This document shows, one piece after another, positions 4,074-61,809 of a stretch of DNA of 64,000 bases; the first letter of the stretch is position 1; the number at the start of each line of letters is the position of its first letter. The translations under genes were made by a program, and so were the position numbers. Source of the stretch: Phocaeicola oris (GTDB lineage Bacteria > Bacteroidota > Bacteroidia > Bacteroidales > Bacteroidaceae); NCBI RefSeq assembly GCF_021295095.1, contig NZ_JAJLQX010000006.1, positions 59,000 through 122,999 on the forward strand. Direction: 5' to 3'. The notes beneath the pieces were generated by a model, which saw nothing but the letters and a program-made list of their open reading frames with translations, did no database searches and was not told where the DNA came from.

Positions 4074-4218
4074 TGATACCCGTGAACCGATAAAGTGATA
4101 CGTATGAATCAACCAACTCATGCGGACGAACCGGTCAACTCATGCGGATGAACCAATCAACTCATACGCATCAGTTGAGCAACTCATGCGTATCACTTCA
4201 CCCGTTCATACACATTGA
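4074..4218. repeat. 22-bp-period palindromic array 1 (7 cores)
   Basis: Seven 12-13-bp cores start at 4074, 4096, 4118, 4140, 4162, 4184 and 4206, exactly 22 bp apart, separated by 10-bp spacers. Cores include TGATACGTATGA, TCATGCGGATGA, TCATACGCATCA and TCATGCGTATCA. Spacers mostly end in CAAC or begin with GTTG. The second core preceded by AAG and the sixth followed by CTT give the array near-inverted outer ends. It occupies the gap between convergent hemW and glmM. No ORF or known element explains it; see the related arrays at 17860, 39439, 54433 and 61776. Confidence 0.9.
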
Positions 4219-4328
4219 CTTGCTTGCCTCTCTATAACAAATCTGTAACACGCATGTATAAACATTGCTATCAAGGGATGAGATGGTGTTATGTCAAGTT
4301 ATAGCAGCCAAACAATTACAAAAAATAG

Positions 4329-4353
4329 CCCCTCACGTATTCATCATGAGGGG
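4329..4353 (-). terminator. Rho-independent terminator of the glmM operon
   Basis: On the minus strand, CCCCTCA pairs with TGAGGGG across an 11-nt loop and is followed by CTATTTTTT. It lies just past the glmM stop codon. Confidence 0.75.
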
Positions 4354-4379
4354 GCGAAATTTTATATCTTCAGTATTTA

Positions 4380-5765
4380 TTACATCAAACCTTTGATAAC
4401 TTCCATCACTTCTTGGCCAATTTTATTGGCAGCCTCCATAGAAGCAGCTTCGGAATAGACACGTATAATAGGCTCTGTATTACTTTTACGCAGATGAACC
4501 CACTTGTCGGGGAAATCAATTTTCACTCCGTCAATATCATTGATCTCCTCTCCCTTAAACAACTCCTTAACTTTTACAAGAATGGCATCAATATCCGTAT
4601 TCGGAGTCAAATCAATTCGATTCTTTGCTATATAATAAGCCGGATAAGTTTCACGGAGTTCGCTTATCTTCACATGTTTTTGAGCCAGATAACTGAGAAT
4701 AAGAGCAATTCCTACCAAAGTATCGCGTCCGTAATGACATTCCGGATAGATAACTCCACCGTTACCTTCACCACCGATAACAGCTCCAACTTCTTTCATC
4801 TTGGTTACTACGTTTACTTCGCCTACAGCCGAAGCATAGTATTCACAACCGTACTTACGTGTTACATCGCGCAAGGCACGAGTAGAGCTCAAGTTGGAAA
4901 CGGTAGCTCCGGGAGTATGCTGAAGAATATAGTCGGCAACTGTCACCAAAGTATATTCCTCTCCATACATCTTTCCGTTCTCCTCAATAACAGCCAGACG
5001 GTCGACATCAGGGTCACAGACAAAAGCAATATCGTAACCTCCTTTCGCGACCAGATTCATAATATCACCCAAGTTCTTCTCCAATGGTTCCGGATTATGC
5101 CGGAAATCTCCTGTAGGCTCACCATAAAGAGTGGTAACCGTATCGACGCCCAACTGTTTCAACAATTTAGGCAGAATAATTCCTCCAACGGAATTAACTG
5201 TATCAAGAGCAACACTGAAATGAGCATTGCGAATAGCTTCCACATCAACCAGCTTCAAACTCAATACTTTATCTATATGTTTCTGATCGTATGTATTATC
5301 CTCACGATATCTGCCTAAATGATCAACGTCGGCATATTCAAAAGCCTCAGCCTCAGCTATACGAAGCACTTCATTTCCTTCTTCTTTATTCAGAAACTCC
5401 CCTTTCTCGTTCAAAAGTTTCAATGCATTCCACTGACGAGGATTATGGCTTGCTGTAAGAATAATACCTCCACATGCCTCCTCCATAGTCACGGCAAGTT
5501 CTGTGGTGGGCGTAGAAGCCAATCCGATATTAACAACATCGAACCCCATCCCCATCAGAGTTCCGCAAACAACGTTCTTTACCATCTCTCCGGAAATGCG
5601 TGCGTCTCTGCCAACAACAATCTTATTTGTAGTGACTTGGGTTGTTTTCCTTATCAGCGTTGCATAAGCTGATGTAAATTTTACAATATCCAATGGATTT
5701 AATCCCTCTCCCGAATGGCCTCCTATAGTGCCACGAATACCAGAAATAGATTTTATTAGTGTCAT
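4380..5765 (-). CDS. glmM: Phosphoglucosamine mutase (phosphohexomutase family)
   Basis: 461-aa alpha-D-phosphohexomutase. The phosphoserine loop TASHNP is at 104-109 (Ser106), the metal-binding loop DPDVDR at 251-256, the sugar-binding GEGNGG at 332-337, and the phosphate-binding RKSNTEP near the C-terminus. The N-terminal SGIRGTIGG is typical of GlmM, which converts glucosamine-6-phosphate to glucosamine-1-phosphate for UDP-GlcNAc and cell wall synthesis. Archaeal-type phosphomannomutases look similar, so the exact sugar is inferred. It overlaps the upstream lipoprotein gene by 4 bp (ATGA), so the two are probably co-transcribed and translationally coupled. Confidence 0.85.
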   Translation of the reverse strand: MTLIKSISGIRGTIGGHSGEGLNPLDIVKFTSAYATLIRKTTQVTTNKIVVGRDARISGEMVKNVVCGTLMGMGFDVVNIGLASTPTTELAVTMEEACGGIILTASHNPRQWNALKLLNEKGEFLNKEEGNEVLRIAEAEAFEYADVDHLGRYREDNTYDQKHIDKVLSLKLVDVEAIRNAHFSVALDTVNSVGGIILPKLLKQLGVDTVTTLYGEPTGDFRHNPEPLEKNLGDIMNLVAKGGYDIAFVCDPDVDRLAVIEENGKMYGEEYTLVTVADYILQHTPGATVSNLSSTRALRDVTRKYGCEYYASAVGEVNVVTKMKEVGAVIGGEGNGGVIYPECHYGRDTLVGIALILSYLAQKHVKISELRETYPAYYIAKNRIDLTPNTDIDAILVKVKELFKGEEINDIDGVKIDFPDKWVHLRKSNTEPIIRVYSEAASMEAANKIGQEVMEVIKGLM

Positions 5766-6394
5766 CTTCCCAATTGATAAGTTATTTCAAAATAGCAAGG
5801 GTATACATACCTTTTAATTTGCATAAAGCTCTCTGAATGAGGTACAATCAAACGAACCTTTCCGCGTTCTCCCATCAATCGTCCAACTTTCAGATATTTA
5901 AATGGAGATAGCAGACCGGTCGGAACAGCTGATTCCCCCCAAGCATTCATTAGTTCACCCCGAGAGAATGTACCGGAGTATGTTGTACCGGACTTTGTAA
6001 CAGTCATTACATCCGGGTCAGGAGTTCCTTGTAGATTTGTATTCCAAAGAGAATCGGTACCATTCTCATAGATACGTGACATATTAAAACGGAAAATAAT
6101 CTCGTGGCGCCCATCCTTCAAATATTCCTTACCACCCCGATTAATTACCTGCATGTAGATACCACTTTCCTTAAAAAGAACGAATTCGTTCTTAAGTACA
6201 TCCGTCATAGTATCATGCGCACAATAGTCTTCTTCCGAAATAACAGTTATATTGTTTTTATCTATAAAACGATTAATAGCTTCGCGCTCATCTTTTTTCC
6301 TTTCAGCATACGTTTTAGTATGACGACATGCTGTAAAAGCCTGACCAACAATTACGGCGGCCACCAACAAAAATGCTATTTTAAGCTTATTCAT
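5762..6394 (-). CDS. DUF4827 family lipoprotein
   Basis: 210 aa. A lipoprotein signal peptide ends in AFTAC (lipidated Cys23), so the mature protein is membrane-anchored outside the cytoplasm. The body matches, by recollection, the Bacteroidetes DUF4827 family, which may have an FKBP-like fold (an early acidic region, then GTFSRGELMNAWGES and a C-terminal beta-rich part ending in CYFEITYQLGR). No catalytic residues can be named. Its stop overlaps the glmM start, a pairing probably conserved in Bacteroides. Function unknown. Confidence 0.75.
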   Translation of the reverse strand: MNKLKIAFLLVAAVIVGQAFTACRHTKTYAERKKDEREAINRFIDKNNITVISEEDYCAHDTMTDVLKNEFVLFKESGIYMQVINRGGKEYLKDGRHEIIFRFNMSRIYENGTDSLWNTNLQGTPDPDVMTVTKSGTTYSGTFSRGELMNAWGESAVPTGLLSPFKYLKVGRLMGERGKVRLIVPHSESFMQIKRYVYPCYFEITYQLGR

Positions 6395-6477
6395 ATCCTT
6401 TTCTATGTAAATTTGAACAAAAGTAATAAAAGAATGCTATATGTAACTATCTGTTTGGTGCAATTAGTATTAAATAA

Positions 6478-7518
6478 CTATTTTTTTGCCAACAATAAAT
6501 CCTGATACTTCACTAAAGCTTGTTTGAAAAGGTTCAATGCTTCTTCAAGCGTCCCATAATATTCTCCACCGGAAGCATTTAAATGCCCACCTCCGTTAAA
6601 GAAATCCGCGGCAACTTTATTACACGGGAACGAACCGACCGAACGTAAAGATATCTTGACCATGTCTTTCTCTGTATCCTCTCTAATAAAAGCTGAAAAT
6701 ATAATATTCTTTATGGTTAAAGGGATATTCACAAATCCTTCCGTATCACCTTTTACATAATGAAAATGCCGTTGCTCTTCTCTATCCAAATAAATTAAAG
6801 CAGAACGGAACTCAGGAAAGACTTCCATCTTATTATAAAGAACATATCCCTCCAAACGAAGACGTCCTTCGGAATAAGTATTATACACATTTCGATAAAT
6901 CTGGTCTTTATCAATGCCTTTCGACAGAAGCTCACTGATAATGGTATATATTTCCGGTTTATTAGAATTATAGGTAAAGCCTCCTGTATCGGTCATCATA
7001 CCACAATATATACATTCAGCTCCTGCCTTCGAAATATTCACAACATCATCTAACTGATAAATCAAACGGAATATCAGCTCTGATGTAGAGCACGCCTCCG
7101 GATGCGAGATGACGATCTGACAGAAATTCCCCGGATTCAGATGATGGTCAATCATTATCTTCTTTCCGGATGCATTCTTTACGGCCTCCTCCATTTCATC
7201 TATTCTGGAAAGCTCATTAAAATCCAAACAGCAAATTACATCAGCCGCATTTAAAAGAGCATCTCCTTTTTCTTTCCATTTATCATAACGAACTATATCG
7301 GGAGCGCAACTCATCCAACGAAGGAAATCAGGAAAGAGATTCGGGACAATAATATCAACTGACTTTCCTTTTTTTATCAGATAATGTCGTAAGCCTAAAG
7401 CCGATCCAATAGCATCTCCATCCGGAGACACATGAACAACAATCGCAAAACGTTCATAATTTTGAATCCACTCTGCAAACTGCTTCACACTGGCATCTGC
7501 AATTATATTCGATAACAT
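6478..7518 (-). CDS. nrnA: DHH-family oligoribonuclease / pAp phosphatase NrnA
   Basis: 346 aa with both domains of the family. The DHH domain has SPDGDAIGS (Asp33, Asp35), Asp99 in CCLDF and the DHH triad at 124-126 (MIDHHLNPG). The DHHA1 domain has the C-terminal GGGHLNASGG substrate-binding motif. NrnA-type enzymes degrade 2-5-nt RNA fragments and can dephosphorylate pAp; Bacteroides lacks the E. coli-type Orn as far as I know, so this is the likely RNA-recycling enzyme. It lies 70 bp downstream of comEC on the same strand. Confidence 0.85.
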   Translation of the reverse strand: MLSNIIADASVKQFAEWIQNYERFAIVVHVSPDGDAIGSALGLRHYLIKKGKSVDIIVPNLFPDFLRWMSCAPDIVRYDKWKEKGDALLNAADVICCLDFNELSRIDEMEEAVKNASGKKIMIDHHLNPGNFCQIVISHPEACSTSELIFRLIYQLDDVVNISKAGAECIYCGMMTDTGGFTYNSNKPEIYTIISELLSKGIDKDQIYRNVYNTYSEGRLRLEGYVLYNKMEVFPEFRSALIYLDREEQRHFHYVKGDTEGFVNIPLTIKNIIFSAFIREDTEKDMVKISLRSVGSFPCNKVAADFFNGGGHLNASGGEYYGTLEEALNLFKQALVKYQDLLLAKK

Positions 7519-7588
7519 CTTTACTACATTTAGAAAATGCGAATATACAATATATTTGCGAATTAAAAGACATTTTTTAGAAGAACCT

Positions 7589-9109
7589 TTAAATAGTCAA
7601 TCGTTCAAATAACATATAAGAACTGCCAATCAGCAAAGTCGCCAACCAATGAATAAAATCTCTACGTCGTCGATAACGAATAAAAAGAAATGTTCCCATT
7701 ATTATAAGGTATAATACGATGACTCCTGAAGGTTTAACATGCAAAACAAAAGAAGCATAAGGCAGACAACTCACCCATTCGGCCACATTATTCAGAAAAT
7801 GAATAGCATGCCTCAAACAGAATATGAATGGAGAAAACAGCAATGAGCCCACAGCCAGATACATAATAATCGGTATGAGCGGCGCTACAATCAGATTAGA
7901 CAATAAAAAATATACGGAGAAATTAGAGAAATAAGTCATAACTAACGGTGCTGTACCCAATTGAGCAGCAAAAGATACACAACAGACACCCCACACATAA
8001 CGTACAACCGAATGATGAGAATGCAAAATATTAAACATAGGGCGATAAAACATAAAAATAGAAAGAACAGCCATAAACGATAGCTGAAAACTAACATCGA
8101 ATAAATAGAAAGGATTATATATCAACATGAAAAACGCAGCCGCCGATAAAACATTGAGCGATGAAAACTTACTACTTCGAATATGCCCCAACTCAACCAG
8201 CATACACATAATGACTGCCCGAACTATGGATGCGGCCAAACCGGCTATAAAAGCATAAATCCACAAAACAGATGTGATTAAAATCCATTTTATAATTCTC
8301 CCACCCGTACTTCGTTTCAGCGGACGCAGCAATAACGTCAACAATCCCCATAATATGCCTACATGTAAGCCTGATATAGCTAACACATGGCTAATTCCCG
8401 CGACGGAAAAATCATGTCTGAGTTCGTCAGTAAGCTCTTCCTTATAACCAACTGTCAATGCAGACAATACCGCGAAATCTTTTTCTTCGAATCGCCAATC
8501 GCGAAACAAATCAATTACTTTAGCCCTCAGTAGCAACGATTTTTGCTTAAATGACAGTGATTGTTGCCCTGTCACCTTCCATTTCCCTGCCTCAACAAAT
8601 CCCGTCCCACTTATTCCCTGACGCAACAGCCATTGGGCATAATCAAAATCACTAAAGTTTTTCGGCCGGTGTATCTTAGAATAAAACAACAACTCATCAC
8701 CCATCTTCAAAGACATGGATAAGCTGTCCTTTCTGATATACATTAATGCCTTTTGCTTATTCAATAGCAATAAACAGGAAACGGTCTTTGCCTTTTTCTT
8801 TGGTATTTCTAATACAGTTCCTTTATAAATCTGACTATTTCCATTCCAATTTGGAGATATTTGTTTCCACTTCAACTGAACAAGCATTCCTCCCAACAAA
8901 AAAAGAAATATATAAAGAACTGTTCCAAATAACCAGCGTAGTTTATATTCTTGCGTTTTAATCAAGAACAGCAATAAAATAAAGAGACACCATGCAGCTA
9001 CCCTGAAGACCATTGTTCCGGTAACAGGAAAGAAAGTATCAGTAAAAAAAATTCCGGCTATCAATGGAATTGTTAGCCGGAGTATAGGGTATGACCTCAA
9101 ATCATTCAC
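7589..9109 (-). CDS. ComEC/Rec2-family DNA uptake membrane protein, short form
   Basis: 506 aa, rich in transmembrane segments. An N-terminal DUF4131-type region (TM helices within about 1-75, then a soluble OB-like part at about 75-200) precedes the competence domain, recognisable by LRHDFSVAGISHVLAISGLHVG and the GLAASIVRA segment. Longer ComEC proteins end in a metallo-beta-lactamase domain; here the protein stops after the membrane domain, as in many Bacteroidetes. The family forms the inner-membrane DNA channel in natural transformation. Whether this one supports uptake cannot be judged from the sequence. It overlaps rpe by 4 bp. Confidence 0.8.
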   Translation of the reverse strand: MNDLRSYPILRLTIPLIAGIFFTDTFFPVTGTMVFRVAAWCLFILLLFLIKTQEYKLRWLFGTVLYIFLFLLGGMLVQLKWKQISPNWNGNSQIYKGTVLEIPKKKAKTVSCLLLLNKQKALMYIRKDSLSMSLKMGDELLFYSKIHRPKNFSDFDYAQWLLRQGISGTGFVEAGKWKVTGQQSLSFKQKSLLLRAKVIDLFRDWRFEEKDFAVLSALTVGYKEELTDELRHDFSVAGISHVLAISGLHVGILWGLLTLLLRPLKRSTGGRIIKWILITSVLWIYAFIAGLAASIVRAVIMCMLVELGHIRSSKFSSLNVLSAAAFFMLIYNPFYLFDVSFQLSFMAVLSIFMFYRPMFNILHSHHSVVRYVWGVCCVSFAAQLGTAPLVMTYFSNFSVYFLLSNLIVAPLIPIIMYLAVGSLLFSPFIFCLRHAIHFLNNVAEWVSCLPYASFVLHVKPSGVIVLYLIIMGTFLFIRYRRRRDFIHWLATLLIGSSYMLFERLTI

Positions 9110-9774
9110 TCCCTTGCTCCCAAGTTTTTAAGTTGGTGAATCATTCCGATAACATCCGGAGCTTTAAAAACAGTATTACCCGCAACAAGTACGTCAGCAC
9201 CGGCCTCAACCAATTGTTTCCCTGTTTTCAGATTCACACCACCATCTACCTCAATAAGTGAATTTGAATGAGTATAATTGATTAGTTCACGTAAAAGCTT
9301 CACTTTATCAATCGTATGTTGAATAAATGCCTGTCCACTGAATCCAGGATTGACACTCATTAGCAAAACCATATCCACATCCTGAATAATATCAGAGACC
9401 ATCACTACAGGAGTAGACGGATTCAAAGTAATGCCCACCTTCATCCCGGCATCTTTAATTTGCTGAATAACACGATGATGATGAATAGTAGCTTCGTAAT
9501 GAATATTCATCATCATTGCGCCCAAATCTCTCACTTCACCAATAAATTTCTCAGGCTGAACAATCATCATGTGAACATCCAATGGCTTTTTTGAAAGCTT
9601 AGCCATATACTTCATTACAGGGAATCCAAAAGAAATATTTGGGACAAAAACTCCGTCCATTACATCCAAATGCAACCAGTCGGCTTCACTCTGATTAATC
9701 AAATCAATATCATGCTGCAAATTTCCAAAATCCGCAGCCAATATTGAAGGAGAAATTAGTGGTTTCATAAGCAT
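9106..9774 (-). CDS. rpe: Ribulose-phosphate 3-epimerase
   Basis: 222-aa TIM barrel. The N-terminal SPSILAADFGNL, then HLDVMDGVFVPNISFG, the HYEA strand, MSVNPGFSGQ and the C-terminal VDGGV and VAGNTVF phosphate-binding segments are all family signatures, with metal-ligand His and Asp residues present. It interconverts ribulose-5-phosphate and xylulose-5-phosphate in the pentose phosphate pathway. A start at the second Met (residue 3) is equally possible. It overlaps comEC by 4 bp, so the two are probably translated together. Confidence 0.93.
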   Translation of the reverse strand: MLMKPLISPSILAADFGNLQHDIDLINQSEADWLHLDVMDGVFVPNISFGFPVMKYMAKLSKKPLDVHMMIVQPEKFIGEVRDLGAMMMNIHYEATIHHHRVIQQIKDAGMKVGITLNPSTPVVMVSDIIQDVDMVLLMSVNPGFSGQAFIQHTIDKVKLLRELINYTHSNSLIEVDGGVNLKTGKQLVEAGADVLVAGNTVFKAPDVIGMIHQLKNLGARE

Positions 9775-9833
9775 AATTATGTTCTCTGAACAAAGGTAAG
9801 CCTAATTATCCAATAAATCGAATAATACTGCTT

Positions 9834-11755: not shown

Positions 11756-11944
11756 GACTCAACCTTTTATATTTATAACACCAATAGATTGAAAATACTG
11801 CATCCTGTCAACAACTTTTTTTTATTAGATACTTTTAACATTATTATATGCAGTCTTTTTATCCGATTTCTATTTAATCTATAGAAGATAACACTCCGCA
11901 ATACCGCTATGAAAAGTCTAAGCAATTGATGACGCAAGACTTTA

Positions 11945-11976: not shown

Positions 11977-11979
11977 GTT

Positions 11980-12951: not shown

Positions 12952-12952
12952 A

Positions 12953-14749
12953 TTACTCTTGTGAGAAATTAACTAATACTTGACGATAGGCATCAAATAC
13001 TTCCGATTTAGAAACAAAGCCCAAATAAGTACCATCTCGTTTCACCACCGGCAAATTCCATGCTTTCGTATCGTCAAACTTTTTCATTACCGTCTCCATC
13101 GTATCATCTTCTATCACACGAGCCGGAGGTGATATCATAAACCGTTGGACTCTAAAACGATGATACAATTCCTGACGGAACATAATATTCCGGATATCAT
13201 CCATAACTACAATGCCAAGAAGCTTATCACTATTATCAACAACCGGGAATAGATTTCGTTTTGAGCGGGAAATAACCTGAATCATCTGTCCTAAATCCAT
13301 ATCCGGAGTAACTTTCAAGAAATCTGTTTCTACCACACTGTCAATATTCAGCAGTGTAAGCACTGCCTTATCTTTATGGTGTGTCAACAGCTCGCCTTTC
13401 TTTGCCAAACGAATAGCATAAATACTCTGCGACTGAAACGCACGGTTTGTCAGATAAGCCGTGGCAGAAACAATCATCAGCGGAAGGAACAAATCGTAAC
13501 CTCCGGTCAACTCTGCTATCAAGAATGTACTGGTCAGCGGAGCATGCATCACACCGGTCATCAGTCCGGCCATGCCATAAAGCGCAAAGTTCTGCTCCGG
13601 AGTAAACGTACCTATATCGAATACATTGCAGAAATGAGCGAAAATGAACCCGGAAATAGCGCCGAGAAACAAACTTGGCGCAAACAAACCACCACAACCG
13701 CCTCCTCCATTTGTCGCGCTCGAAGCAAAGACTTTTACTAAAACAATGAGTGACAAATATACTAACAACATATTCCCATCGCCTGAGAAAAAAGAATTCC
13801 GCATCACCATATTCCAATCGGCATCACTCTTACCGTTAATAAGTAATCCTACCGTATCGTAACCCTCTCCATAAAGCGAGGGAAAGAAGAAGATGAGCAG
13901 GCTCAAAGTAATGCCGCCAATTGCTAACTTGGTATATGGGTTGCTGTAACGACGAAATACATTCTCACACATATCCATCATTCGTGTAAAGTAAACGGAA
14001 ACTAATCCACATGCTATTCCCAATATAATTACAGAAGGAACTCGCTTCAGTATAAAAGGCTCCACCATGTGAAACTCAAAAAGAGCCTGCGTACCTGTCA
14101 ACAAATAAGAAACGATAGCAGCACTCACGCTGGTTACGAGTAGTGGAAGTAATGAATTCATCGTCAGGTCTATCATCAACACTTCAAGCACGAACAACAT
14201 TCCCGCAATAGGTGCTTTATAGATACCTGCAATGGCTCCGGCAGCGCCACAACCAACTAACAACATCAGTGTTTTATGGTCGAGTTTGAACACACTGCCC
14301 AAATTAGAACCGATGGCAGAACCGGTCAACACAATAGGTGACTCTGCTCCAACCGATCCACCAAAACCAATGGTAATAGCACTCGCGATAAGCGACGACC
14401 AACAGTTATGTCGCTTAATACGACTTTTCCTTCGGGATATGGCATACAATATCTTTGTCACGCCATGCCCTATATCATCCTTTACCACATAGCGGATGAA
14501 CAGACTGGTAATAAAAATTCCGATAACAGGATAAACCAGATACAGCCAGTTGCTACCCATTGCATTGAAATTACTCGTAAGCAGATGCTGCAAACCTTCA
14601 ATCAACAATTTAAGCAATCGGGCGGCAATAGCGGTGAGTACACCTACTATAATACTGAGCAACAGTACGAACTGACTCTCGCTAACATGCTTCTCGCGCC
14701 AAAGAATAAAGCGTTGCAGCAGACCGGATTTTTCTGGTATCGGATCCAT
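12953..14749 (-). CDS. ClC-family chloride channel/transporter with tandem CBS domains
   Basis: 598 aa. The membrane domain (about 25-440) contains GFGGSVGAESPIVLTG with the gating-type Glu136 (the usual motif is GxEGP; here GAESP) and GCGGLFAPSLFLGA, the GxFxP selectivity motif. Two CBS repeats follow (about 470-595), with FPVVDNSDKLLGIVVMDDIR and NLPVVKRDGTYLGFVSKSEVF, suggesting regulation by nucleotides. The gating glutamate is kept, so either H+/Cl- exchange or channel activity is possible. It shares an operon with fmt and the Sua5-type gene. Confidence 0.88.
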   Translation of the reverse strand: MDPIPEKSGLLQRFILWREKHVSESQFVLLLSIIVGVLTAIAARLLKLLIEGLQHLLTSNFNAMGSNWLYLVYPVIGIFITSLFIRYVVKDDIGHGVTKILYAISRRKSRIKRHNCWSSLIASAITIGFGGSVGAESPIVLTGSAIGSNLGSVFKLDHKTLMLLVGCGAAGAIAGIYKAPIAGMLFVLEVLMIDLTMNSLLPLLVTSVSAAIVSYLLTGTQALFEFHMVEPFILKRVPSVIILGIACGLVSVYFTRMMDMCENVFRRYSNPYTKLAIGGITLSLLIFFFPSLYGEGYDTVGLLINGKSDADWNMVMRNSFFSGDGNMLLVYLSLIVLVKVFASSATNGGGGCGGLFAPSLFLGAISGFIFAHFCNVFDIGTFTPEQNFALYGMAGLMTGVMHAPLTSTFLIAELTGGYDLFLPLMIVSATAYLTNRAFQSQSIYAIRLAKKGELLTHHKDKAVLTLLNIDSVVETDFLKVTPDMDLGQMIQVISRSKRNLFPVVDNSDKLLGIVVMDDIRNIMFRQELYHRFRVQRFMISPPARVIEDDTMETVMKKFDDTKAWNLPVVKRDGTYLGFVSKSEVFDAYRQVLVNFSQE

Positions 14750-17859: not shown

Positions 17860-17982
17860 CGATACGTACAAACGCTTGAAGTGATACGGATGAGTTGGGC
17901 AGTTCATGCGTATGAGTTGAATGATTCATCCGCGTGAGTTGTTGAACTCATACGTATCAATCACACAACAGATACGTATTGA
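17860..17982. repeat. 22-bp-period palindromic array 2 (6 cores)
   Basis: Cores start at 17860, 17882, 17904, 17926, 17948 and 17970, exactly 22 bp apart. Examples are TGATACGGATGA, TCATGCGTATGA, TCATCCGCGTGA and TCATACGTATCA. The last core, AGATACGTATTGA, is identical to the last core of the array at 54433. The array ends 9 bp before the start codon of the DUF3987 remnant. Confidence 0.88.
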
Positions 17983-17991
17983 TTTAAGGGG

Positions 17992-18726
17992 ATGACTGCC
18001 GGGGAGTTGGAATTACTCATCGGAAAGGTGCAACAGCGGGCGGACGAGACTTGCGGAACTGCCGAGATAAGGAAGAAAATACGGTCGGGATATGGCTATG
18101 TGAATGGTAAATTTAATGAACACGTAGGTTCACTTGGTTCACTTGGTTCACCTATGCTGTTTTCGGAACCTGAAAAGAATGAAAATTTTTCAGAAAACAC
18201 TGAGTCACAGGATGATATTACCGAACACACCATTAGTGCCCTACCCTGCCTGCCCCGTTGTGTTTATACCCATCTTAATCAAATTTTGCTTACAATAACG
18301 AACATAGCGAACATATACTACGGACTGATAATGATGCGCCTCTGCGCCATCCTCACGGCCATGCGTAAGTGGGAAGCTAAAATGACGTTCACCGATGTTT
18401 ATTGCGACGATGCCGATTTTAAAACGGCACGGGGCATAGTGCTGAACTGCATAAAGCACAGCTTGGCGCTGTTCACCATGCTGCCCGGCGGCATCAAGGT
18501 AACGCAGCCGGCAAAAAGCAACGAGGAAGTATTCTATATTCTCTTGGCTATGCCTGAAGAATTTACGTGGAGTGAATTTTGGGCTGCCCTGAAAGCTGCT
18601 CAGTTTTCAAAAAATAATTGTAACAGAGCATTGAAAAAGTTTGTCAAAAAAGGGTTCATTGTAAAAAAAGAAGGCAAGTATATAAAGAACAAAAAAGCCC
18701 TGAAGAAAGTGTCTAAAAGAGCATAG
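17992..18726 (+). pseudogene. Remnant of a VirE-N/DUF3987-type protein with internal deletion
   Basis: The open frame (244 aa) looks like both ends of a much longer Bacteroidetes DUF3987 primase/helicase-like protein joined together. The first ~60 codons (ELELLIGKVQQRADETCGTAEIRKKI) resemble the end of the VirE-N region. LPCLPRCVYTHLNQIL then looks like the beginning of DUF3987, and from about residue 115 (MMRLCAILTAMRKWEAKMTFTDVYC) the sequence is the C-terminal end of such proteins. The N-terminal domain and the ATPase core are missing. A 34-bp inverted repeat lies inside the frame (18125-18158) and at its stop (18720-18753). Probably non-functional. Confidence 0.6.
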
Positions 18727-18753
18727 GTGAACCAAGTGAACCAAGTGAACCTA
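18125..18753. repeat. 34-bp inverted repeat pair flanking the DUF3987 remnant core
   Basis: Positions 18125-18158 and 18720-18753 are exact reverse complements. Each arm contains tandem 9-bp units (GGTTCACTT). The right arm contains the stop codon of the remnant. The arms are about 560 bp apart. Confidence 0.9.
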
Positions 18754-18786
18754 AAAAGATGTTAAAACGATGTTTTAGGTTATCCT

Positions 18787-18883
18787 GAGCCTGCTTTTCC
18801 GGAAAATATAAAAAAAAGACAACGGGTGTTGTTTTTCGCTCCCAAACAGGGAACCCGCCCTGAAAACCGGAAAAAGCAGGCTC
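18787..18883. other. Compound hairpin region downstream of the remnant
   Basis: GAGCCTGCTTTTCCGG (18787-18802) pairs with 18867-18883, with one bulged A. Two smaller hairpins lie inside, ACAAC/GTTGT near 18819-18833 and CAGGG/CCCTG near 18847-18862. No gene is seen in 18754-19000. This may be a structured RNA or the end of a decayed element. Confidence 0.5.
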
Positions 18884-18983
18884 TTTCCCTATCAGGCATA
18901 ACGGTAAAATAATTTGAAGTATTCGTACAATTGAAAGATACTTATAATTCACCGAACTCATTACATAACCTACACATAATAAC

Positions 18984-24674: not shown

Positions 24675-24680
24675 TAACGT

Positions 24681-24744
24681 GTTTTTCATAGTATTAGATT
24701 TAAAGGTTAATAAAAGGTTGGGATACAGCGGTATCCCTTTTTTT
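24681..24744 (+). ncRNA. Candidate ~64-nt small RNA
   Basis: A complete transcription unit without an ORF: a promoter just upstream and an intrinsic terminator at its end (GGGATAC 24720-24726, loop AGCG, GTATCCC, then seven T). The 5' part is AT-rich and unstructured. The next plus-strand gene is far away and rplS is antisense to this direction. Exact ends are estimates. The rest of 24400-24895 shows only promoter and terminator elements of the neighbours. Confidence 0.5.
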
Positions 24745-24849
24745 ATGTCCGTACATCAGATGATAAAAAATAAAACTGACTTATACTGATATAAGTCAAA
24801 CTTCATCGGTTTATAGCGATAATGCTTGCAAAACAGAACAAATAAAAAG

Positions 24850-39221: not shown

Positions 39222-39438
39222 GTTTATATATGGTTATTGAAATTTTATGCCATGAACGCTAAATGTCTGGCATGATGTTTCTGCGCTTCAATACAAATAA
39301 ATAAGGAGAATTCAAAACGAATTAAAAATAACACAAGCCGTGTATCATTTCTTCTTTGTAAATGAATACACGGCTTGCGGGGACACTGACAATATACTAC
39401 TATACAACTGCTGATACGGTGCATATAAACGAATAAAG

Positions 39439-39560
39439 TGATACGTATGAGTTGCTCAACTGATACGCATGAGTTTGACAATTCATCCGCATGAGTTGAC
39501 CGGTTCATCCGCATCAGTTTGTTGGTTCATCCGCATGAGTTTGTTGGTTCATACATATCA
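39439..39560. repeat. 22-bp-period palindromic array 3 (6 cores)
   Basis: Cores start at 39439, 39461, 39483, 39505, 39527 and 39549: TGATACGTATGA, TGATACGCATGA, TCATCCGCATGA, TCATCCGCATCA, TCATCCGCATGA, TCATACATATCA. The last two complete spacers are identical (GTTTGTTGGT). The outer ends AAGTGATACG and TATCACTT are near inverted. A decayed core lies at 39417. The array is in the 750-bp gap between convergent ferredoxin and rhaM genes; I see nothing else there except the rhaM terminator and AT-rich sequence. Confidence 0.9.
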
Positions 39561-53421: not shown

Positions 53422-53441
53422 TACATCTTTTATATGAATGA

Positions 53442-54309: not shown

Positions 54310-54360
54310 TCTTCATATAAATTATAATAAGACAAATTAAGAAACCATTTTGATGATTAT

Positions 54361-54395
54361 AGAGGGTGTGCCTTGAGGGTATACCCTCTTTCTTT
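54361..54395 (+). terminator. Terminator of the NigD-like gene
   Basis: AGAGGGT and GCC pairs with GGT and ACCCTCT, followed by TTCTTTT. Confidence 0.8.
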
Positions 54396-54432
54396 TATCA
54401 TTTAATAAAGTGATGGAGATTAAGAATAAAAG

Positions 54433-54533
54433 TGTTGCGTATCAACGACCGAAGTCATCCGCATCATTTTATCGTTTCACAGCTGTGAAACGATAAAGTC
54501 ATCCGCATGAACGGAAAGAAAGATACGTATTGA
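54433..54533. repeat. 22-bp-period palindromic array 4 (5 cores)
   Basis: Cores start at 54433, 54455, 54477, 54499 and 54521: TGTTGCGTATCA, TCATCCGCATCA, TCACAGCTGTGA, TCATCCGCATGA, AGATACGTATTGA. The central core is a perfect palindrome and extends with its spacers into a perfect 30-bp inverted repeat (54468-54497). It lies between convergent NigD-like and FKBP genes; the rest of that 420-bp gap holds only their terminators. Confidence 0.88.
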
Positions 54534-54679
54534 AATGTATCTGATTAAAGACAATAATATTATATTGTTGTTCAACCGGAATAAGTAATGCCTTAAAACA
54601 AGTCAACTCCTCTGATTCGCTGTTTTCCGGCAAATAAAAAACATAGTTTGCTTTGCCAAGCATCAAGCACTAATAATAA

Positions 54680-54708
54680 AGCTCTCTGCAATTTTCCTGC
54701 AAAGAGCT
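54680..54708 (-). terminator. Terminator-like hairpin after the FKBP gene
   Basis: AGCTCT and GCA pairs with TGC and AGAGCT on the minus strand, just past the FKBP stop. Confidence 0.55.
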
Positions 54709-54732
54709 CTATTGATGATGTATTGATACAAC

Positions 54733-55341: not shown

Positions 55342-55347
55342 ATTTAA

Positions 55348-56889: not shown

Positions 56890-56963
56890 TTCCTTATTAA
56901 ATTATATCTTTACAAATGAGCCACGAAAAGCTTGTTTCAACTCCTTCGTGACTAAATAATGCG

Positions 56964-56971
56964 CAAATCTA
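56964..56971 (-). promoter_or_regulatory. -7 promoter element of glyS
   Basis: Minus strand TAGATTTG. Confidence 0.5.
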
Positions 56972-56994
56972 ATATTTTTTTCCAATAAAATTGT

Positions 56995-57002
56995 TATTTT
57001 TG
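56995..57002 (+). promoter_or_regulatory. -7 promoter element of parC
   Basis: TATTTTTG, 37 nt before the ATG at 57040. Confidence 0.5.
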
Positions 57003-57039
57003 CATACATTCATTACAAGTTAAGGATTTTAAATAATTT

Positions 57040-59739
57040 ATGAGCGACGAAATAGACGATATAAAATACACCGATCCGGAGAATCAACCGGCTGAGGAAG
57101 GAAGCCACTCTGAGTACAAGCCTGCTGACGAAAGGAAAGATACCGGAGTCACTCACCAGTTGAGTGGTATGTATAGGAACTGGTTTCTGGACTATGCCTC
57201 GTATGTTATTCTGGAACGAGCAGTACCGCATATTAACGATGGTCTGAAACCTGTTCAACGCCGTATTCTTCACAGCATGAAAGAGATGGACGACGGACGT
57301 TACAATAAAGTGGCTAACATTGTAGGTCACACCATGCAATACCATCCACACGGCGACGCGTCCATAGGCGACGCATTGGTACAGCTTGGGCAAAAAGATT
57401 TATTGATAGACTGCCAAGGAAACTGGGGAAACATTCTCACCGGTGACCGTGCTGCCGCTTCCCGATATATTGAAGCACGATTATCAAAGTTTGCCAACGA
57501 CGTAGTATTTAACCCAAAAACAACGGAATGGCAATACTCTTACGATGGACGACACGAAGAGCCGGTTACATTACCTGTTAAGTTTCCTCTACTATTAGCA
57601 CAAGGAGCTGAAGGTATCGCTGTAGGTCTGTCATGTAAGATTCTTCCACATAACTTCAACGAAATTTGTGACGCGGCCATCTCTTATTTAAAGAATGAGC
57701 CATTCCAGCTCTATCCCGACTTTCCTACCGGTGGTTCCATTGATGTATCAAAGTATAATGATGGAGCACGAGGCGGTGTAATCAAAGTACGTGCAAAAAT
57801 TAATAAGGTAGATAACAAGACACTGGTTATTACTGAATTGCCATTCGGAAAGACCACCTCTTCCCCCCCCGACAGACCTTCATCTTCATTGCCTGACTCT
57901 ATTCTAAAAGCAGTAGAAAAAGGAAAAATCAAAATTAAGAAGGTAGATGATAACACAGCAGCCGATGTGGAAATTATCGTACATCTTGCTCCGGGAGCTT
58001 CATCAGATAAAACCATTGACGCACTATACGCGTTCACCGACTGTGAAGAAAGCATCTCTCCGAACTGTTGTGTCATTGACGGAAAGAAGCCATGTTTTCT
58101 GACGGTCAGTGATATACTCTGTAAATCGGTAGATAACACAAAAAATTTGCTCCGCAAAGAACTGGAAATCAGAAAGAATGAACTGCTGGAGAATTTACAT
58201 TTCTCATCATTGGAACGCATTTTCATCGAAGAACGTATATATAAAGGTAAAGAATTCGAGCAAGCCCCAAACATGGATGCCGCCTGTGCCTATGTAGATG
58301 AACGATTGACTCCGTTCTATAAAGATATGATCCGTGAAGTAACCAAAGACGATATTTTAAAACTCATGGATATAAAGATGGCTCGTATCTTAAAATTCAA
58401 TAAAGACAAAGCGGAAGCTGCCATCGCTCGTATCAAGGATGAAATAAACGATATAAACGAAAAGCTAAATCACTTGATAGAGCATACCATAGCATGGTAC
58501 ACTATGCTGAAAAACAAATACGGTGCCCAATTCCCACGTCGGACAGAGATACGTAACTTCGACACCATAGAAGCTACCAAAGTAGTGGAGGCTAACGAGA
58601 AACTGTATATCAACAGAGAAGAAGGCTTCATAGGAACTTCACTGAAAAAGGATGAATTCGTAGCCAACTGCTCGGATATTGACGATGTGGTGCTGTTTTA
58701 TAAAGACGGTAAATGCAAGATTGTCAAAGTGGCCGATAAACTTTTCGTGGGGAAAGATGTAATTTATATCAATATCTTTGAGAAAAACGATAAACGTACC
58801 ATATATAATGTAGTATACCGCGATGGAAAGAATGGCTTCTACTACATCAAACGCTTTAACCTGACATCATTAAACCGTGATAAAGAATACGACATAACAA
58901 AAGGCAAGCCCGGATCACGCATTATTTACTTCACAGCCAATTCAAATGGAGAGGCAGAAGTTATAAAAATCACGTTGAAACCGAATCCGCGTATCAAGAA
59001 AATTACATTCGAGAAAGACTTTAGTGAAATACTTATCAAGGGACGGCAGGCAATGGGCAATATTTTGTCGAAAAACGAAATACACCGCATAGCTCTTAAG
59101 CAACGCGGAGGCTCAACCTTAGGCGGACGAAAAGTCTGGTTCGATCCGGATATTCTGCGAATCAATTATGATGAGCACGGAAAATATTTAGGCGAATTCC
59201 AAAGCGATGACCAGATTTTGATCATTCAGGAAGATGGCCAATTCTATACTACCGACTTCGATGCTAACAATCATTACGAACAAGGTATTAAGATCATAGA
59301 GAAGTTAGACATAAATAAAGTATGGACAGCCATTCTTTTTGATGCTGATCAAAAAGGTTATCCGTATTTGAAACGATTCAATTTGGAAGAATCTTCTAAG
59401 AAACAACCCATATTGGGAGCCAACCCTGAAAGTAAACTTATTTTGTTGTCCGACACTACATATCCTCGTTTCGAGGTAAAGTTTAGCGGACTTGATGATT
59501 TCCGTGATCCATTGATTATTGACGCAGAGTCGTTTGTCAACGTAAAAAGCTTTAAGGCAAAAGGAAAACGAATCTCCACATATACAATTGATACGGTTAC
59601 TGAGCTGGAACCAACGCACTTACCTAAACCTCCAAAAGAAGAGAACGAAGAAGAAGAGGCTCCCAATGAAGATCCGGATGCAGGAAAGAGTGATTCCGAT
59701 TTAATAGATGAAATGACCGGTCAGATGAAGCTATTCTAA
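57040..59739 (+). CDS. parC: DNA topoisomerase IV subunit A
   Basis: 899 aa. Breakage-reunion core with YHPHGDASIGDAL (101-113; the usual quinolone-site Ser is Ala107) and the catalytic Tyr143 in GDRAAASRYIEARLS. Coiled-coil dimer region about 395-490. The C-terminal beta-pinwheel has QRGGSTLGGRKVWFDPD instead of a clear GyrA box. The ending is acidic (EENEEEEAPNEDPDAG), then DLIDEMTGQMKLF. Residues 276-283 (PPDRPSSS) look like an insertion in a loop that in relatives reads roughly KTTSSLIDSILKA, and begin in a C8 tract. parE is not in the window. Confidence 0.9.
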   Translation: MSDEIDDIKYTDPENQPAEEGSHSEYKPADERKDTGVTHQLSGMYRNWFLDYASYVILERAVPHINDGLKPVQRRILHSMKEMDDGRYNKVANIVGHTMQYHPHGDASIGDALVQLGQKDLLIDCQGNWGNILTGDRAAASRYIEARLSKFANDVVFNPKTTEWQYSYDGRHEEPVTLPVKFPLLLAQGAEGIAVGLSCKILPHNFNEICDAAISYLKNEPFQLYPDFPTGGSIDVSKYNDGARGGVIKVRAKINKVDNKTLVITELPFGKTTSSPPDRPSSSLPDSILKAVEKGKIKIKKVDDNTAADVEIIVHLAPGASSDKTIDALYAFTDCEESISPNCCVIDGKKPCFLTVSDILCKSVDNTKNLLRKELEIRKNELLENLHFSSLERIFIEERIYKGKEFEQAPNMDAACAYVDERLTPFYKDMIREVTKDDILKLMDIKMARILKFNKDKAEAAIARIKDEINDINEKLNHLIEHTIAWYTMLKNKYGAQFPRRTEIRNFDTIEATKVVEANEKLYINREEGFIGTSLKKDEFVANCSDIDDVVLFYKDGKCKIVKVADKLFVGKDVIYINIFEKNDKRTIYNVVYRDGKNGFYYIKRFNLTSLNRDKEYDITKGKPGSRIIYFTANSNGEAEVIKITLKPNPRIKKITFEKDFSEILIKGRQAMGNILSKNEIHRIALKQRGGSTLGGRKVWFDPDILRINYDEHGKYLGEFQSDDQILIIQEDGQFYTTDFDANNHYEQGIKIIEKLDINKVWTAILFDADQKGYPYLKRFNLEESSKKQPILGANPESKLILLSDTTYPRFEVKFSGLDDFRDPLIIDAESFVNVKSFKAKGKRISTYTIDTVTELEPTHLPKPPKEENEEEEAPNEDPDAGKSDSDLIDEMTGQMKLF

Positions 59740-59741
59740 AC

Positions 59742-60587
59742 ATGAAAAAAGGAATCGTATCATTGTTGCTATTTGTACTTTGCGTCTGTACATACGGACA
59801 GGAGGACAGCCTTCGGACCAACAGATACGTAGTGAGGTCGACCATGTTTGGAGTCGGCTTCACCAATCTTTTGGATACTTATCTTTCCCCTCTCAATTAT
59901 AAGGGGGGAGAGTTCCGTATCATCAATGAACGCATGCGAATGACCAATTTGATGAAGGGAAAAGTATCCATCCAGAACATGTTCCAAATGAATATCGGCA
60001 TAGCAAACAATAAAGCAGCTACCGGAACTGAAATGTTCGGCATGGCCAACTGGAACACAGCATGGCATTATCAGCTAAAAGTAAACGATAAGCTTAAACT
60101 GTTATTCGGTCCGGCTATTGACCTCAATGCCGGCTTTGTATATAACACCCGTAATTCTAATAATCCGGCACAGGCCATTGCCAATGGAAATATGGATATA
60201 TCGGGTATGGCTATTTATCATTTCAGAATAAAGAATTATCCAATGGTAGCCCGTTACCAAATGAATATTCCAATGATGGGCGTTATGTTCTCTCCGGAAT
60301 ATGGAGAATCGTATTATGAAATATTCGAACTGAAACATGAAGGTAGCAATGTAGTATTTACCACTCCGTTTAACAGACCTTCGTTTCGTCAATTTATCTC
60401 ACTTGATTTCCCCATTAATATAGTCAATCTGCGTTTAGGATATATGGCCGACATTCAGCAATCGAAAGTCAATCATATAAAAAGTCATATATGGAGCCAT
60501 GCGCTGGTTATTGGTATCGTAAGAAATTTCTATATCATAAAAGGAAAGAACAAAGTTTCTTTACCGTCAAAAGTAACTGCATTCTAA
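59742..60587 (+). CDS. DUF3316 domain protein
   Basis: 281 aa with a signal peptide (MKKGIVSLLLFVLCVCTYGQ). The repeated aromatic/glycine beta-strand pattern (TMFGVGFTNLLDTYLSPLNYKGGEFRIINERMRMTN, LLFGPAIDLNAGFVYNTRNSNNPAQAIANG, RQFISLDFPINIVNLRLGYMADIQQS) fits the Bacteroidetes DUF3316 family and an outer-membrane barrel. Function unknown. It follows parC after 2 bp and precedes the S41 protease by 1 bp. Confidence 0.78.
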   Translation: MKKGIVSLLLFVLCVCTYGQEDSLRTNRYVVRSTMFGVGFTNLLDTYLSPLNYKGGEFRIINERMRMTNLMKGKVSIQNMFQMNIGIANNKAATGTEMFGMANWNTAWHYQLKVNDKLKLLFGPAIDLNAGFVYNTRNSNNPAQAIANGNMDISGMAIYHFRIKNYPMVARYQMNIPMMGVMFSPEYGESYYEIFELKHEGSNVVFTTPFNRPSFRQFISLDFPINIVNLRLGYMADIQQSKVNHIKSHIWSHALVIGIVRNFYIIKGKNKVSLPSKVTAF

Positions 60588-60588
60588 T

Positions 60589-61617
60589 ATGAATAAATTG
60601 TACTCACTTTTTACAGCTATTATTTTAATTATCACAATGACATCATGCGTGAATGAAGACTCTTTCGACAATTCTCCCAAAGGAAACTTTGAGCAACTAT
60701 GGAAAATTATTGATGAACATTACTGCTTCTTAGATTATAAAAATAAAGAATACGGATTAGATTGGGACGCGATACATACTACCTATAAAAATAGAATTAC
60801 ATCGACGATGACCAGTAAGGAACTCTTTGATGTACTGAGTGATATGGTAAACGAATTACACGATGGACACGTGAATTTAGTTTCGAAAGATCGCACGTCG
60901 CAATACCGTATATGGTATGATGCATACCCGCGAAACTTCAACGACAGTATACAAAGCAACTATTTGGGAAAAGATTATCTTTATTCCTCCGGATTGAAAT
61001 ATTGCATTCTTGACGATAATATCGGATACATTTATTGCGGAAGTTTTGAATACACATTTGGGAACAGTGCGTTAGACGAAATCCTGACCTATTTATCTGC
61101 TTGTAACGGATTAATTATGGATGTTCGTAATAACGGAGGGGGAAACCTTACTTCTGCGGAAGCTTTAGCATCCCGCTTTACCAACAAAAAAATACTAACA
61201 GGCTATATGCAATACAAAACAGGAAAGGGACATCATGACTTTTCTTCTCCTGAAGCCGTCTATACCGATACACCAACAGACAGAGTACGGTGGCAAAAAC
61301 CTGTAGCTGTGCTCACTAACCGTCGCTCATATAGCGCGACAAACGATTTTGTCAATCGGATGAGCCAATTTGATAATGTAACAATAATAGGAGATAAAAC
61401 AGGTGGTGGTTCCGGCTTACCTTTTACATCTGAAATTTCAAACGGATGGAGTATCCGCTTTTCTGCCTGTCCCATGTTTGATCCAAGTATGAATCAAATT
61501 GAATTCGGAATAGATCCGGACATCAAGGTAGATATTACATCGGACGATTACAATCGAGGAATAGATACCGTCATAGAACGTGCCCGTGCACTCTTAATTA
61601 TAAAAGCAAATCAATAA
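60589..61617 (+). CDS. S41-family (tail-specific) protease lipoprotein
   Basis: 342 aa. Lipobox MTSC with Cys20. An N-terminal helical part contains ELHDGHVNLV. The S41 core has LIMDVRNNGGGN (176-186), the probable nucleophile Ser249 in NRRSYSATNDF and Lys270 in IIGDKTGGGSG. No clear PDZ domain, unlike CtpA. Envelope-anchored protease with unknown substrate; co-transcribed with parC and the DUF3316 gene. Confidence 0.88.
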   Translation: MNKLYSLFTAIILIITMTSCVNEDSFDNSPKGNFEQLWKIIDEHYCFLDYKNKEYGLDWDAIHTTYKNRITSTMTSKELFDVLSDMVNELHDGHVNLVSKDRTSQYRIWYDAYPRNFNDSIQSNYLGKDYLYSSGLKYCILDDNIGYIYCGSFEYTFGNSALDEILTYLSACNGLIMDVRNNGGGNLTSAEALASRFTNKKILTGYMQYKTGKGHHDFSSPEAVYTDTPTDRVRWQKPVAVLTNRRSYSATNDFVNRMSQFDNVTIIGDKTGGGSGLPFTSEISNGWSIRFSACPMFDPSMNQIEFGIDPDIKVDITSDDYNRGIDTVIERARALLIIKANQ

Positions 61618-61631
61618 TATTTCTGTTTCTT

Positions 61632-61662
61632 TTTGCAATATCCAAAATATTATATACTTTTG
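61632..61662 (+). promoter_or_regulatory. Promoter of tRNA-Leu
   Basis: TTTG (61632-61635), 19 bp, then TACTTTTG (61655-61662): a textbook Bacteroides promoter. Confidence 0.65.
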
Positions 61663-61679
61663 CAAATGCTTACGTGTAT

Positions 61680-61761
61680 GCGCCTGTGGCGTAATTGGCA
61701 GCCGCGCTAGACTTAGGATCTAGTGACGTGAGTCGTGTAGGTTCGAGTCCTATCAGGCGCA
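61680..61761 (+). tRNA. tRNA-Leu(TAG)
   Basis: 82 nt with a long variable arm. Acceptor GCGCCTG pairs with CAGGCGC. The anticodon stem CTAGA/TCTAG holds loop CTTAGGA, giving anticodon TAG. T-loop GTTCGAGTC is present. Discriminator A; CCA not encoded. Confidence 0.95.
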
Positions 61762-61775
61762 CTAAGAAAAAGAAA

Positions 61776-61809
61776 TGATGCGTATGAATCGATTGATTTG
61801 TACGCATCA
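61776..61809. repeat. 22-bp palindromic array 5 (2 clear cores) after tRNA-Leu
   Basis: TGATGCGTATGA (61776) and TTGTACGCATCA (61798) lie 22 bp apart. Together with flanks they form a 15-bp perfect stem (61770-61784 with 61801-61815) that follows the tRNA by 8 bp and ends in TTTCTT, so here the repeat may serve as terminator. Decayed cores may continue to about 61853. Confidence 0.75.

What the first reader, a model, noticed from the sequence alone, without database searches (positions are those of the whole stretch)
4074..61809. A dispersed family of 22-bp-period palindromic arrays
At 4074-4218, 17860-17982, 39439-39560, 54433-54533 and 61776-61809 the same design recurs: 12-bp near-palindromic cores (about TSATNCGNATSA) separated by exactly 10-bp spacers, 2 to 7 cores each, with outer ends tending to AAGTGATACG and its reverse complement. 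The 22-bp period is two DNA turns, so all cores face the same side of the helix, as expected for cooperative binding by a dimeric protein. Neighbouring cores can also pair as RNA hairpins. Four of five clear arrays lie between convergent genes. Spacers vary while cores and period are kept, and cores come in interchangeable variants (ACGTA, CCGCA, GCGTA), which points to selection on the core. I know of no named element with this design; REP/BIME elements of enterobacteria are the nearest analogy.
Basis: seen in the sequence. Interest (0 to 1): 0.85.

Follow-up and report, generated by a model that had tools for sequence, protein, structure and literature searches.

The report
Transposon-borne 22-bp hairpin repeat arrays
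The scattered 22-base palindrome arrays are real and appear to be the repetitive core of a small jumping element, probably spread by a common bacterial transposase, that filled many gaps between genes of one bacterium; similar two-helix-turn hairpin repeats seem to recur in its relatives with different sequences.

Summary
In 1.22 Mb (41%) of the host assembly I find 66 arrays of TSATNCGNATSA cores at 22 bp, against 0 in a shuffle; none lies inside a predicted gene. They are near-specific to this genome: 2 of 61 same-genus genomes match, the second weakly.

Some arrays sit inside ~350-450 bp elements with inverted ends (ACGTGAGTTCGACGAA...). Of 14 two-ended copies found, 3 have exact 7-bp target duplications, 3 have 6/7 and 8 have at most 4/7. 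Four near-identical copies (97.5-99.3%) differ by whole 22-bp units. The ends match IS982 insertion sequences, one of which truncates seven contig ends here. One element fuses part of an IS982 transposase gene to the array. So this is an IS982-derived MITE carrying a minisatellite, closest to BrickBuilt of Porphyromonas gingivalis.

Against this: 43 of 66 arrays show no detectable arm, and the five two-ended copies holding only the reported core lack target duplications.

Two further core types share the 22-bp period. In related Bacteroidales, intergenic tandem repeats also peak at 21-22 bp with near-palindromic, unrelated units. Dimeric-protein binding is untested.

The parts
4074..4195 (-). 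Array of 6 cores at 22-bp period, read on the minus strand; folds as one long hairpin; between convergent genes (radical SAM/HemN-like and phosphoglucomutase)
17882..17959 (+). Array of 4 cores at 22-bp period; in a divergent gap by my gene calls (the left neighbour has overlapping ORFs on both strands); lies beside an unrelated repeated ~800-bp block
39439..39560 (+). Array of 6 cores at 22-bp period; between convergent genes
39317..39395 (+). Left arm of the MITE carrying the 39439 array (profile match E 5.5e-9, model positions 18-97); the model was built from eight other copies and its outer end is the IS982-type inverted repeat. No right arm was matched.
54433..54510 (+). Hybrid array of 4 cores: three near the TSATNCGNATSA kind and one TCACAGCTGTGA (54477-54488) in the same 22-bp register; between convergent genes; no arm matched
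61769..61816 (+). Two-core hairpin just 3' of the tRNA-Leu gene (61680-61762); 22-bp stem, fold z -10.5; terminator-like by eye

Best explanation
The arrays are the internal minisatellite of an IS982-derived MITE family that multiplied in this Phocaeicola-group genome.

Anatomy: an inverted end (ACGTGAGTTCGACGAA...); a left arm of ~100-160 bp, whose outer part resembles (by eye and by a 37-42 bp match) the 3' end of an IS982 transposase gene; an array of 22-bp units; a right arm of ~145-165 bp; and the matching inverted end.

Shown: ends shared with IS982, 7-bp target duplications in some young copies, near-identical copies at different sites, whole-unit length differences, and an IS982-array fusion.

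Inferred: a host IS982 transposase moves the elements in trans. Unit number changes by slippage or unequal recombination. Each unit is a near-dyad, so the array is one long hairpin in RNA (or a cruciform in DNA). Copies survive between genes, most easily between convergent ones, where they can act as transcript ends or 3'-end structures. Older copies keep the array and lose the arms.
For: Two-ended copies: 14 distinct elements; 3 have exact 7-bp target duplications (TATCTTA/TAAGATA twice, TAAATTA) and 3 have 6/7. Four young copies are 97.5-99.3% identical and differ by 0, 22 or 44 bp of array plus one single-base gap. Arms: 19 of 66 arrays have an arm at E <= 1e-3 in either orientation, 7 have both, and 17 of the 19 agree in orientation with the spacers; nine of the 66 arrays contributed flanks to the arm models, so their matches are by construction. 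Short arm motifs occur in 37 of 66 (union of four tests), against 0-2 of 66 in each single control.

IS982: a 121-126 bp end, 100% identical, sits at seven contig ends and encodes a C-terminus 79-80% identical to one that matches the IS982 model (97 bits, partial). A longer relative of it in G047 scores 249 bits against a cut-off of 130. Of 30 genus loci fetched with such transposases, 24 hold an exact ACGTGAGTTCG, 14 of them on both strands. L276 fuses a transposase 5' part to the array and right arm, with a 6/7 duplication.

Restriction: 2 of 61 genus genomes match. Location: 0 of 66 arrays inside predicted genes.
Against: 43 of 66 arrays have no arm in either orientation even at E <= 0.05 (47 at E <= 1e-3). 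Eight of 14 two-ended copies have at most 4 of 7 matching duplication bases. The exact duplications are in copies whose arrays are mainly of the second core type (TCACNNNNGTGA), while the five copies with only the first core type show 1-4 of 7. Two arrays at E <= 1e-3, and four at 0.05, have arms opposite to their spacer orientation (the votes for the two are weak, 3 to 2 and 4 to 2). None of the 10 own-genome transposase matches is a full copy of the subfamily at the contig ends; the one long open frame, on C13, is a more distant IS982 (51%), so the trans-acting transposase is inferred. No strain comparison shows a filled and an empty site. Nothing here shows any effect on transcription.
Confidence: 0.75

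Rival explanations
1. The arrays are a host chromosomal minisatellite, spread by recombination or its own means, that MITEs repeatedly capture; the 22-bp period and dyad are the primary feature and the MITE is secondary.
For: Most arrays lack detectable arms (43 of 66 at E <= 0.05). A second small element family (core CCACGNNCGTGA, 11 loci, 5 with TTAGGTGTA upstream) has the same period and no IS982 ends by eye in the loci read. Species in which the array is not detected have intergenic repeats of 21-22 bp with other sequences. The BrickBuilt authors describe their element as a MITE-like element that trapped a repeat (PMC4596501, passages).
Against: Where arms are found, 17 of 19 have one orientation relative to the array, as expected of descent from one ancestral element. 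Partial arm motifs extend the link to 37 of 66.
Confidence: 0.35
2. Cooperative binding arrays for a dimeric host DNA-binding protein, selected for spacing of two helical turns.
For: The period is strict (distances 22, 44, 66, 88 and 110 dominate). Two core types share one register (61 of 72 first-to-second type distances are 22, 44, 66, 88 or 110). Related genomes show repeat periods near 21-22 and 41-43 bp.
Against: The core centre is less complementary than shuffled, the halves of the spacer are constrained unequally, and arrays are oriented. Copies are found in all gene contexts. The family is nearly confined to one of 61 genus genomes, unlike a conserved regulon. No candidate protein was sought.
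Confidence: 0.12
3. Selected RNA hairpins: bidirectional terminators or 3'-end stabilisers of flanking transcripts. This can be true together with the best explanation.
For: Oriented-strand RNA folds well (mean z -3.83; 56 of 66 below -2; other strand -2.14 and 38 of 66) and better than the other strand in 57 of 66. Spacer positions 8 and 9 are purine in 267 and 274 of 279 spacers, opposite positions that are T in 258 and 264. Convergent gaps are enriched. The 61769 hairpin follows a tRNA gene.
Against: No covariation beyond column composition. Orientation agrees with the flanking genes in only 17 of 25 tandem cases (p = 0.11). Sixteen arrays are between divergent genes. Of three second-type arrays folded, one is more stable on the strand opposite to its arm orientation.
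Confidence: 0.3
4. A REP/BIME-type family moved by a REP-associated Y1 transposase.
For: Dispersed short intergenic palindromes in composites; the resemblance to REP/BIME is recalled.
Against: No PF01797 match in the genome at E <= 0.1 (the assembly is 95% complete). IS982-type ends and target duplications instead.
Confidence: 0.02

Closest known systems
BrickBuilt MITE of Porphyromonas gingivalis (PMC4596501)
   Same: Intergenic MITE with leader and tail arms, inverted ends and an internal minisatellite of variable unit number; predicted long stem-loops; many copies with degraded ends (4 of 19 keep both). Its 23-bp unit is also near-palindromic: the best resolution of the degenerate consensus scores 0.78 (reached by 1% of its shuffles), the mean over resolutions 0.70, the shuffle mean 0.54.
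   Different: Period 23, not 22; a different unit sequence; ends like ISPg1 (called IS5 there), not ACGTGAGTTCGA; 19 copies, against 66 arrays in 41% of this genome; promoter activity was tested there and not here.
P. gingivalis MITE239 / MITE700 (listed in the same paper)
   Same: Their listed ends (ACGTGAGTTCGATATAAAGGAA...TCGAACTCACGT) resemble the ends here.
   Different: Interiors not compared: I had no sequence of them and saw only passages.
IS982 family insertion sequences
   Same: Ends; a fragment of the transposase gene in one chimera; target duplication of about 6-7 bp.
   Different: No element here was found to carry a complete transposase gene.
REP / BIME elements with RAYT transposases
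   Same: Dispersed intergenic palindromes in composites.
   Different: No Y1 transposase match in the genome; tandem 22-bp array; inverted ends and target duplications.

Membership tests
MITE | Short (50-1000 bp), without a complete transposase gene, with terminal inverted repeats | tested here: met
   14 distinct elements of 353-648 bp with both ends; both arms matched for 7 of 66 first-type arrays, so for most arrays this is not shown
MITE | Target-site duplication | tested here: inconclusive
   3 of 14 exact 7 bp, 3 of 14 at 6/7, 8 of 14 at most 4/7; none exact in the five first-type-only copies
MITE | Autonomous partner with the same ends in the genome | tested here: inconclusive
   An IS982 end at seven contig ends, 86-90% identical to MITE ends over 37-42 bp; the full IS is not assembled, so its other end is not compared
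IS982-derived element | Remnant of an IS982 transposase gene | tested here: met
   One chimera, L276, with an IS982 N-terminal fragment (28.9 bits to NF033520, E 7.8e-7, below the whole-protein cut-off of 130); not shown for the other elements beyond the end match
BrickBuilt | 23-nt unit with consensus AGAYCATARTATCCTCTCRTRTG and ISPg1-like ends | tested here: not met
   Unit 22 bp with a different sequence; ends ACGTGAGTTCGA (consensus from PMC4596501)
REP/BIME | Associated Y1 (RAYT) transposase | tested here: not met
   0 matches to PF01797 at E <= 0.1; control rang in 8 of 14 genomes
Known structured RNA (Rfam) | Match at the gathering score | tested here: not met
   Four matches in the window (FopS sRNA, two tRNAs, 5S rRNA), none at an array
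Cooperative operator array | Bound by a dimeric protein | not testable with these tools
   No binding data

The most novel reading that the evidence does not exclude
Bacteroidales genomes carry a general class of intergenic minisatellites defined by geometry rather than sequence: a period of about two helical turns (21-23 bp, with a second peak at 41-43) and near-dyad units. They arise again and again with unrelated sequences and are often spread by MITEs. BrickBuilt and the arrays here would be two members. The shared geometry would then reflect one common cause, either a host factor that binds or copies two-turn dyads, or a hairpin-driven duplication process.
Probability: 0.35. Interest if true: 0.68.

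Novelty: new variant of a known kind. Interest (0 to 1): 0.52.

Why it matters
It links an unexplained DNA pattern to a mobile element with a named transposase family, and adds a more abundant case of a minisatellite riding inside a MITE. Because the arrays fold as long hairpins and sit in 64 of 361 gene gaps of at least 100 bp in the sample, they are good candidates for shaping transcript ends. The recurrence of 21-22 bp near-palindromic repeats in related bacteria, if it holds, makes an open question testable: whether tandem-repeat period in bacteria is set by DNA helix geometry or by hairpin chemistry.

Tried and rejected
REP/RAYT: rejected, no Y1_Tnp match. Rfam RNA family: none at the arrays. 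Phage or plasmid origin: no match of one array in 50,697 phage records or of one two-ended element in 72,556 plasmid records. One 16-mer of the unit occurs once each in 11 IMG/VR contigs, which I take as chance without further check. Covariation as proof of RNA structure: looked for and not found. Orientation relative to flanking genes: weak, not significant. Presence at the same place in relatives: one search found no in-phase core pair in the 80 named relatives' contigs around the 57040-59739 gene. I did not attempt a base-level empty-site comparison; the nearest genus genomes are 74-75% identical over that gene. An adjacent IS982 (C13, L006) first looked like an array-bearing autonomous element; by eye the sequence shows a separate MITE end beside it.

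Papers: PMC4596501, part 1 of 9 of the text and passages; PMC5771137, PMC10969869 and PMC4060949, passages only; others, search listing only. That I found neither this family nor the Bacteroidales-wide pattern in print rests on searches of open-licence papers only.
Full report
WHAT IS THERE. The five places hold tandem cores of the form TSATNCGNATSA at 22 bp. In the window there are 15 strict cores against 0.59 expected, and all close core distances are multiples of 22. The window is C47:59000-122999 of a 2.98-Mb, 50-contig assembly. A same-genus genome, G026, has a contig of the same length as the Phocaeicola abscessus CCUG 55929 record NZ_HE997185.1, so I place the host in that genus; the species has no name here.

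GENOME SCALE. I took 1,221,050 bases (41% of the assembly; chosen as large or hit-bearing contigs, not at random) and scanned them. There are 291 strict cores against 12 in a shuffle, and 66 arrays against 0. Cores per array peak at 6 (24 arrays), with 13 of 5 and 12 of 7. Scaling gives roughly 160 arrays in the genome, an extrapolation. A tandem-repeat finder agrees: 87 of 130 arrays have period 22, 44 or 66, and 86 of 107 intergenic ones. By midpoint, none of the 66 lies inside a predicted gene; 25 are in tandem gaps, 23 convergent, 16 divergent and 2 at an edge (my own simple gene caller). The 64 placed arrays lie in 64 distinct gaps of at least 100 bp, of 361 such gaps. Convergent gaps are enriched (odds ratio 2.5, p = 0.004).

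THE CARRIER. Flank comparison showed that some copies share ~100 bp to the left and ~160 bp to the right. These arms end in an inverted repeat, ACGTGAGTTCGACGAA... / ...TTCATCGAATTCACGT. A search of the sample and up to 39 other own-genome loci for elements with both ends found 14 distinct ones; three have exact 7-bp target duplications, three have 6 of 7, and eight have at most 4 of 7. Four young copies are 97.5-99.3% identical, and their lengths of 448, 426, 425 and 404 bp differ by whole 22-bp units apart from one single-base gap. With profiles of the arms, 17 of 66 arrays have an arm in the expected orientation at E <= 1e-3 (19 at 0.05). Counting either orientation gives 19 at 1e-3 and 23 at 0.05; 7 have both arms, and 43 have none. 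Nine of the 66 supplied flanks to the profiles and match by construction. Short arm motifs are found in 37 of 66, with single controls of 0 to 2 of 66. So the link is direct for a minority and probable for about half; the rest are explained by decay, which is inference.

THE TRANSPOSASE. The left end of the young copies matches, at 86% over 37 bp, sequence near seven contig ends of this genome; these are 100% identical over 121-126 bp, as expected of a multi-copy insertion sequence that stops assembly. That end encodes a protein C-terminus 79-80% identical to a 107-aa fragment from G019; the fragment matches in 24 of 61 genus genomes and belongs to the IS982 family (Pfam DDE_Tnp_1_3; NCBIfam IS982 97 bits over part of the model). 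A longer relative in G047 scores 249 bits to the IS982 model, cut-off 130. Of the 30 loci fetched with these transposases, 24 contain an exact ACGTGAGTTCG, 14 of them on both strands (listing). L276 holds a 648-bp element in which an end and the first part of an IS982 transposase gene run into the array and the MITE right arm, with a 6 of 7 target duplication. This fusion ties the array to IS982 directly.

MORE THAN ONE CORE. The young copies carry another core, TCACNNNNGTGA, also at 22 bp, and both cores share one register: 61 of 72 first-to-second type distances are 22, 44, 66, 88 or 110 bp. The window array at 54433 is such a hybrid. A third core, CCACGNNCGTGA, occurs at 11 loci, 5 of them after TTAGGTGTA, apparently in a separate small element. 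What is kept is the period and the dyad, not the sequence.

STRUCTURE. Oriented by their spacers, the first-type arrays read TCATNCGNATGA GTTGNNCRRT. RNA of that strand is more stable than the other in 57 of 66, with mean z -3.83 against -2.14. In the window the MFE folds of arrays 4074 and 17882 are single long hairpins broken mostly by single mismatches every 5-14 bases. Position 9 of the spacer is A or G in 274 of 279 and position 8 in 267 of 279, opposite positions 2 and 3, which are T in 264 and 258 of 279. One half thus varies almost only by changes that keep A-U or G-U pairs, while its partner hardly varies. That is what RNA pairing would allow, but it could be a founder effect: I found no covariation beyond column composition, and the core centre is less complementary than shuffled. 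Orientation agrees with the flanking genes in 17 of 25 tandem cases (p = 0.11), and one of three second-type arrays folded prefers the strand opposite to its arms. So a transcript-level role is possible, not shown.

RANGE. Of 61 genomes of the genus, only this one and G029 match an array at E <= 1e-3, G029 with four short pieces. In 400 kb each of P. abscessus, G029 and G041 no pair of strict first-type cores lies within 120 bp; one G029 locus outside that stretch shows two cores in phase with one mismatch allowed. Their intergenic tandem repeats, pooled with those of 80 contigs of relatives around one conserved gene, also favour this geometry: of 178 arrays, 36 have period 22 and 18 have 21, against 1, 3 and 3 for 20, 23 and 24, with 14 at 41-43. 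Other periods are common too: 7 (34 in the 80 contigs) and 14 (12). Units of 20-24 bp have circular palindromicity 0.604 against 0.512 shuffled, and 18 of 61 exceed 96% of shuffles, against 1 of 30 for periods 12-19; but 8 of 25 units of 25-45 bp also do, so dyad symmetry is not special to the two-turn class. The 21-22 bp signal is spread over 27 of 80 contigs; shuffled contigs give 4 arrays in all, two of period 21 or 22, and 300 kb of E. coli gives 4, one of period 21, which lies in a coding region. One G041 unit, TCACTTAAGTGATGAAATTTCA, is a perfect double dyad. The sample is small, the 80 contigs share a genomic neighbourhood, and E. coli is a single outgroup, so I treat this as a lead.

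KNOWN KINDS. BrickBuilt is a MITE of P. gingivalis with a 23-nt minisatellite, leader and tail arms and predicted long stem-loops (PMC4596501). Its authors also mention 41- and 22-nt repeats in that species. The anatomy is the same; the ends and unit differ, so this is not BrickBuilt but another minisatellite-bearing MITE, with IS982-type ends. The same paper lists ACGTGAGTTCGA ends for MITE239. REP elements are disfavoured by the missing Y1 transposase.

VERDICT. A real, abundant, near-genome-specific family, best explained as an IS982-derived MITE carrying a 22-bp dyad minisatellite. The function of the array is unknown; transcript-end hairpins are the most likely effect on neighbours. The wider 21-22 bp pattern is the part most worth following.

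Noticed in passing
L181 about 14080-14290 (G000:C33): A CRISPR-like array whose repeats end in AATTTCTACTATTGTAGAT, which I recall as a Cas12a-type repeat, lies immediately beside a third-type (CCACGNNCGTGA) 22-bp array.
   Followed up: no
window 18104-18907: A repeated ~800-bp block with a 244-aa ORF reaching into it (no Pfam or NCBIfam match) and inverted flanks of short GGTTCACTT-like repeats; a 92.9% copy at C11:27648, a partial 74% copy at C11:116315, and pieces at the starts of contigs C22 and C47. It looks like another mobile element, unrelated to the arrays.
   Followed up: partly
L276 1195-1842 (G000:C1): A 648-bp chimera: an IS982 end with the first part of the transposase gene, fused to the array and MITE right arm, with inverted ends and a 6 of 7 target duplication.
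   Followed up: yes
L302-L321 (G026, P. abscessus): Intergenic tandem repeats of 41-43 bp (10) and 64-66 bp (4) with sequences unlike the arrays here, beside 8 of 21-22 bp.
   Followed up: partly
L344 8610-8687 and L351 2895-2972 (G041): 22-bp arrays with units TCACTCAAGTGATGAAACTTTA and TCACTTAAGTGATGAAATTTCA (the latter a perfect double dyad), whose core resembles the second core type here.
   Followed up: no
window 24679-24747: A FopS-family small RNA (Rfam RF04319, 74.8 bits).
   Followed up: no
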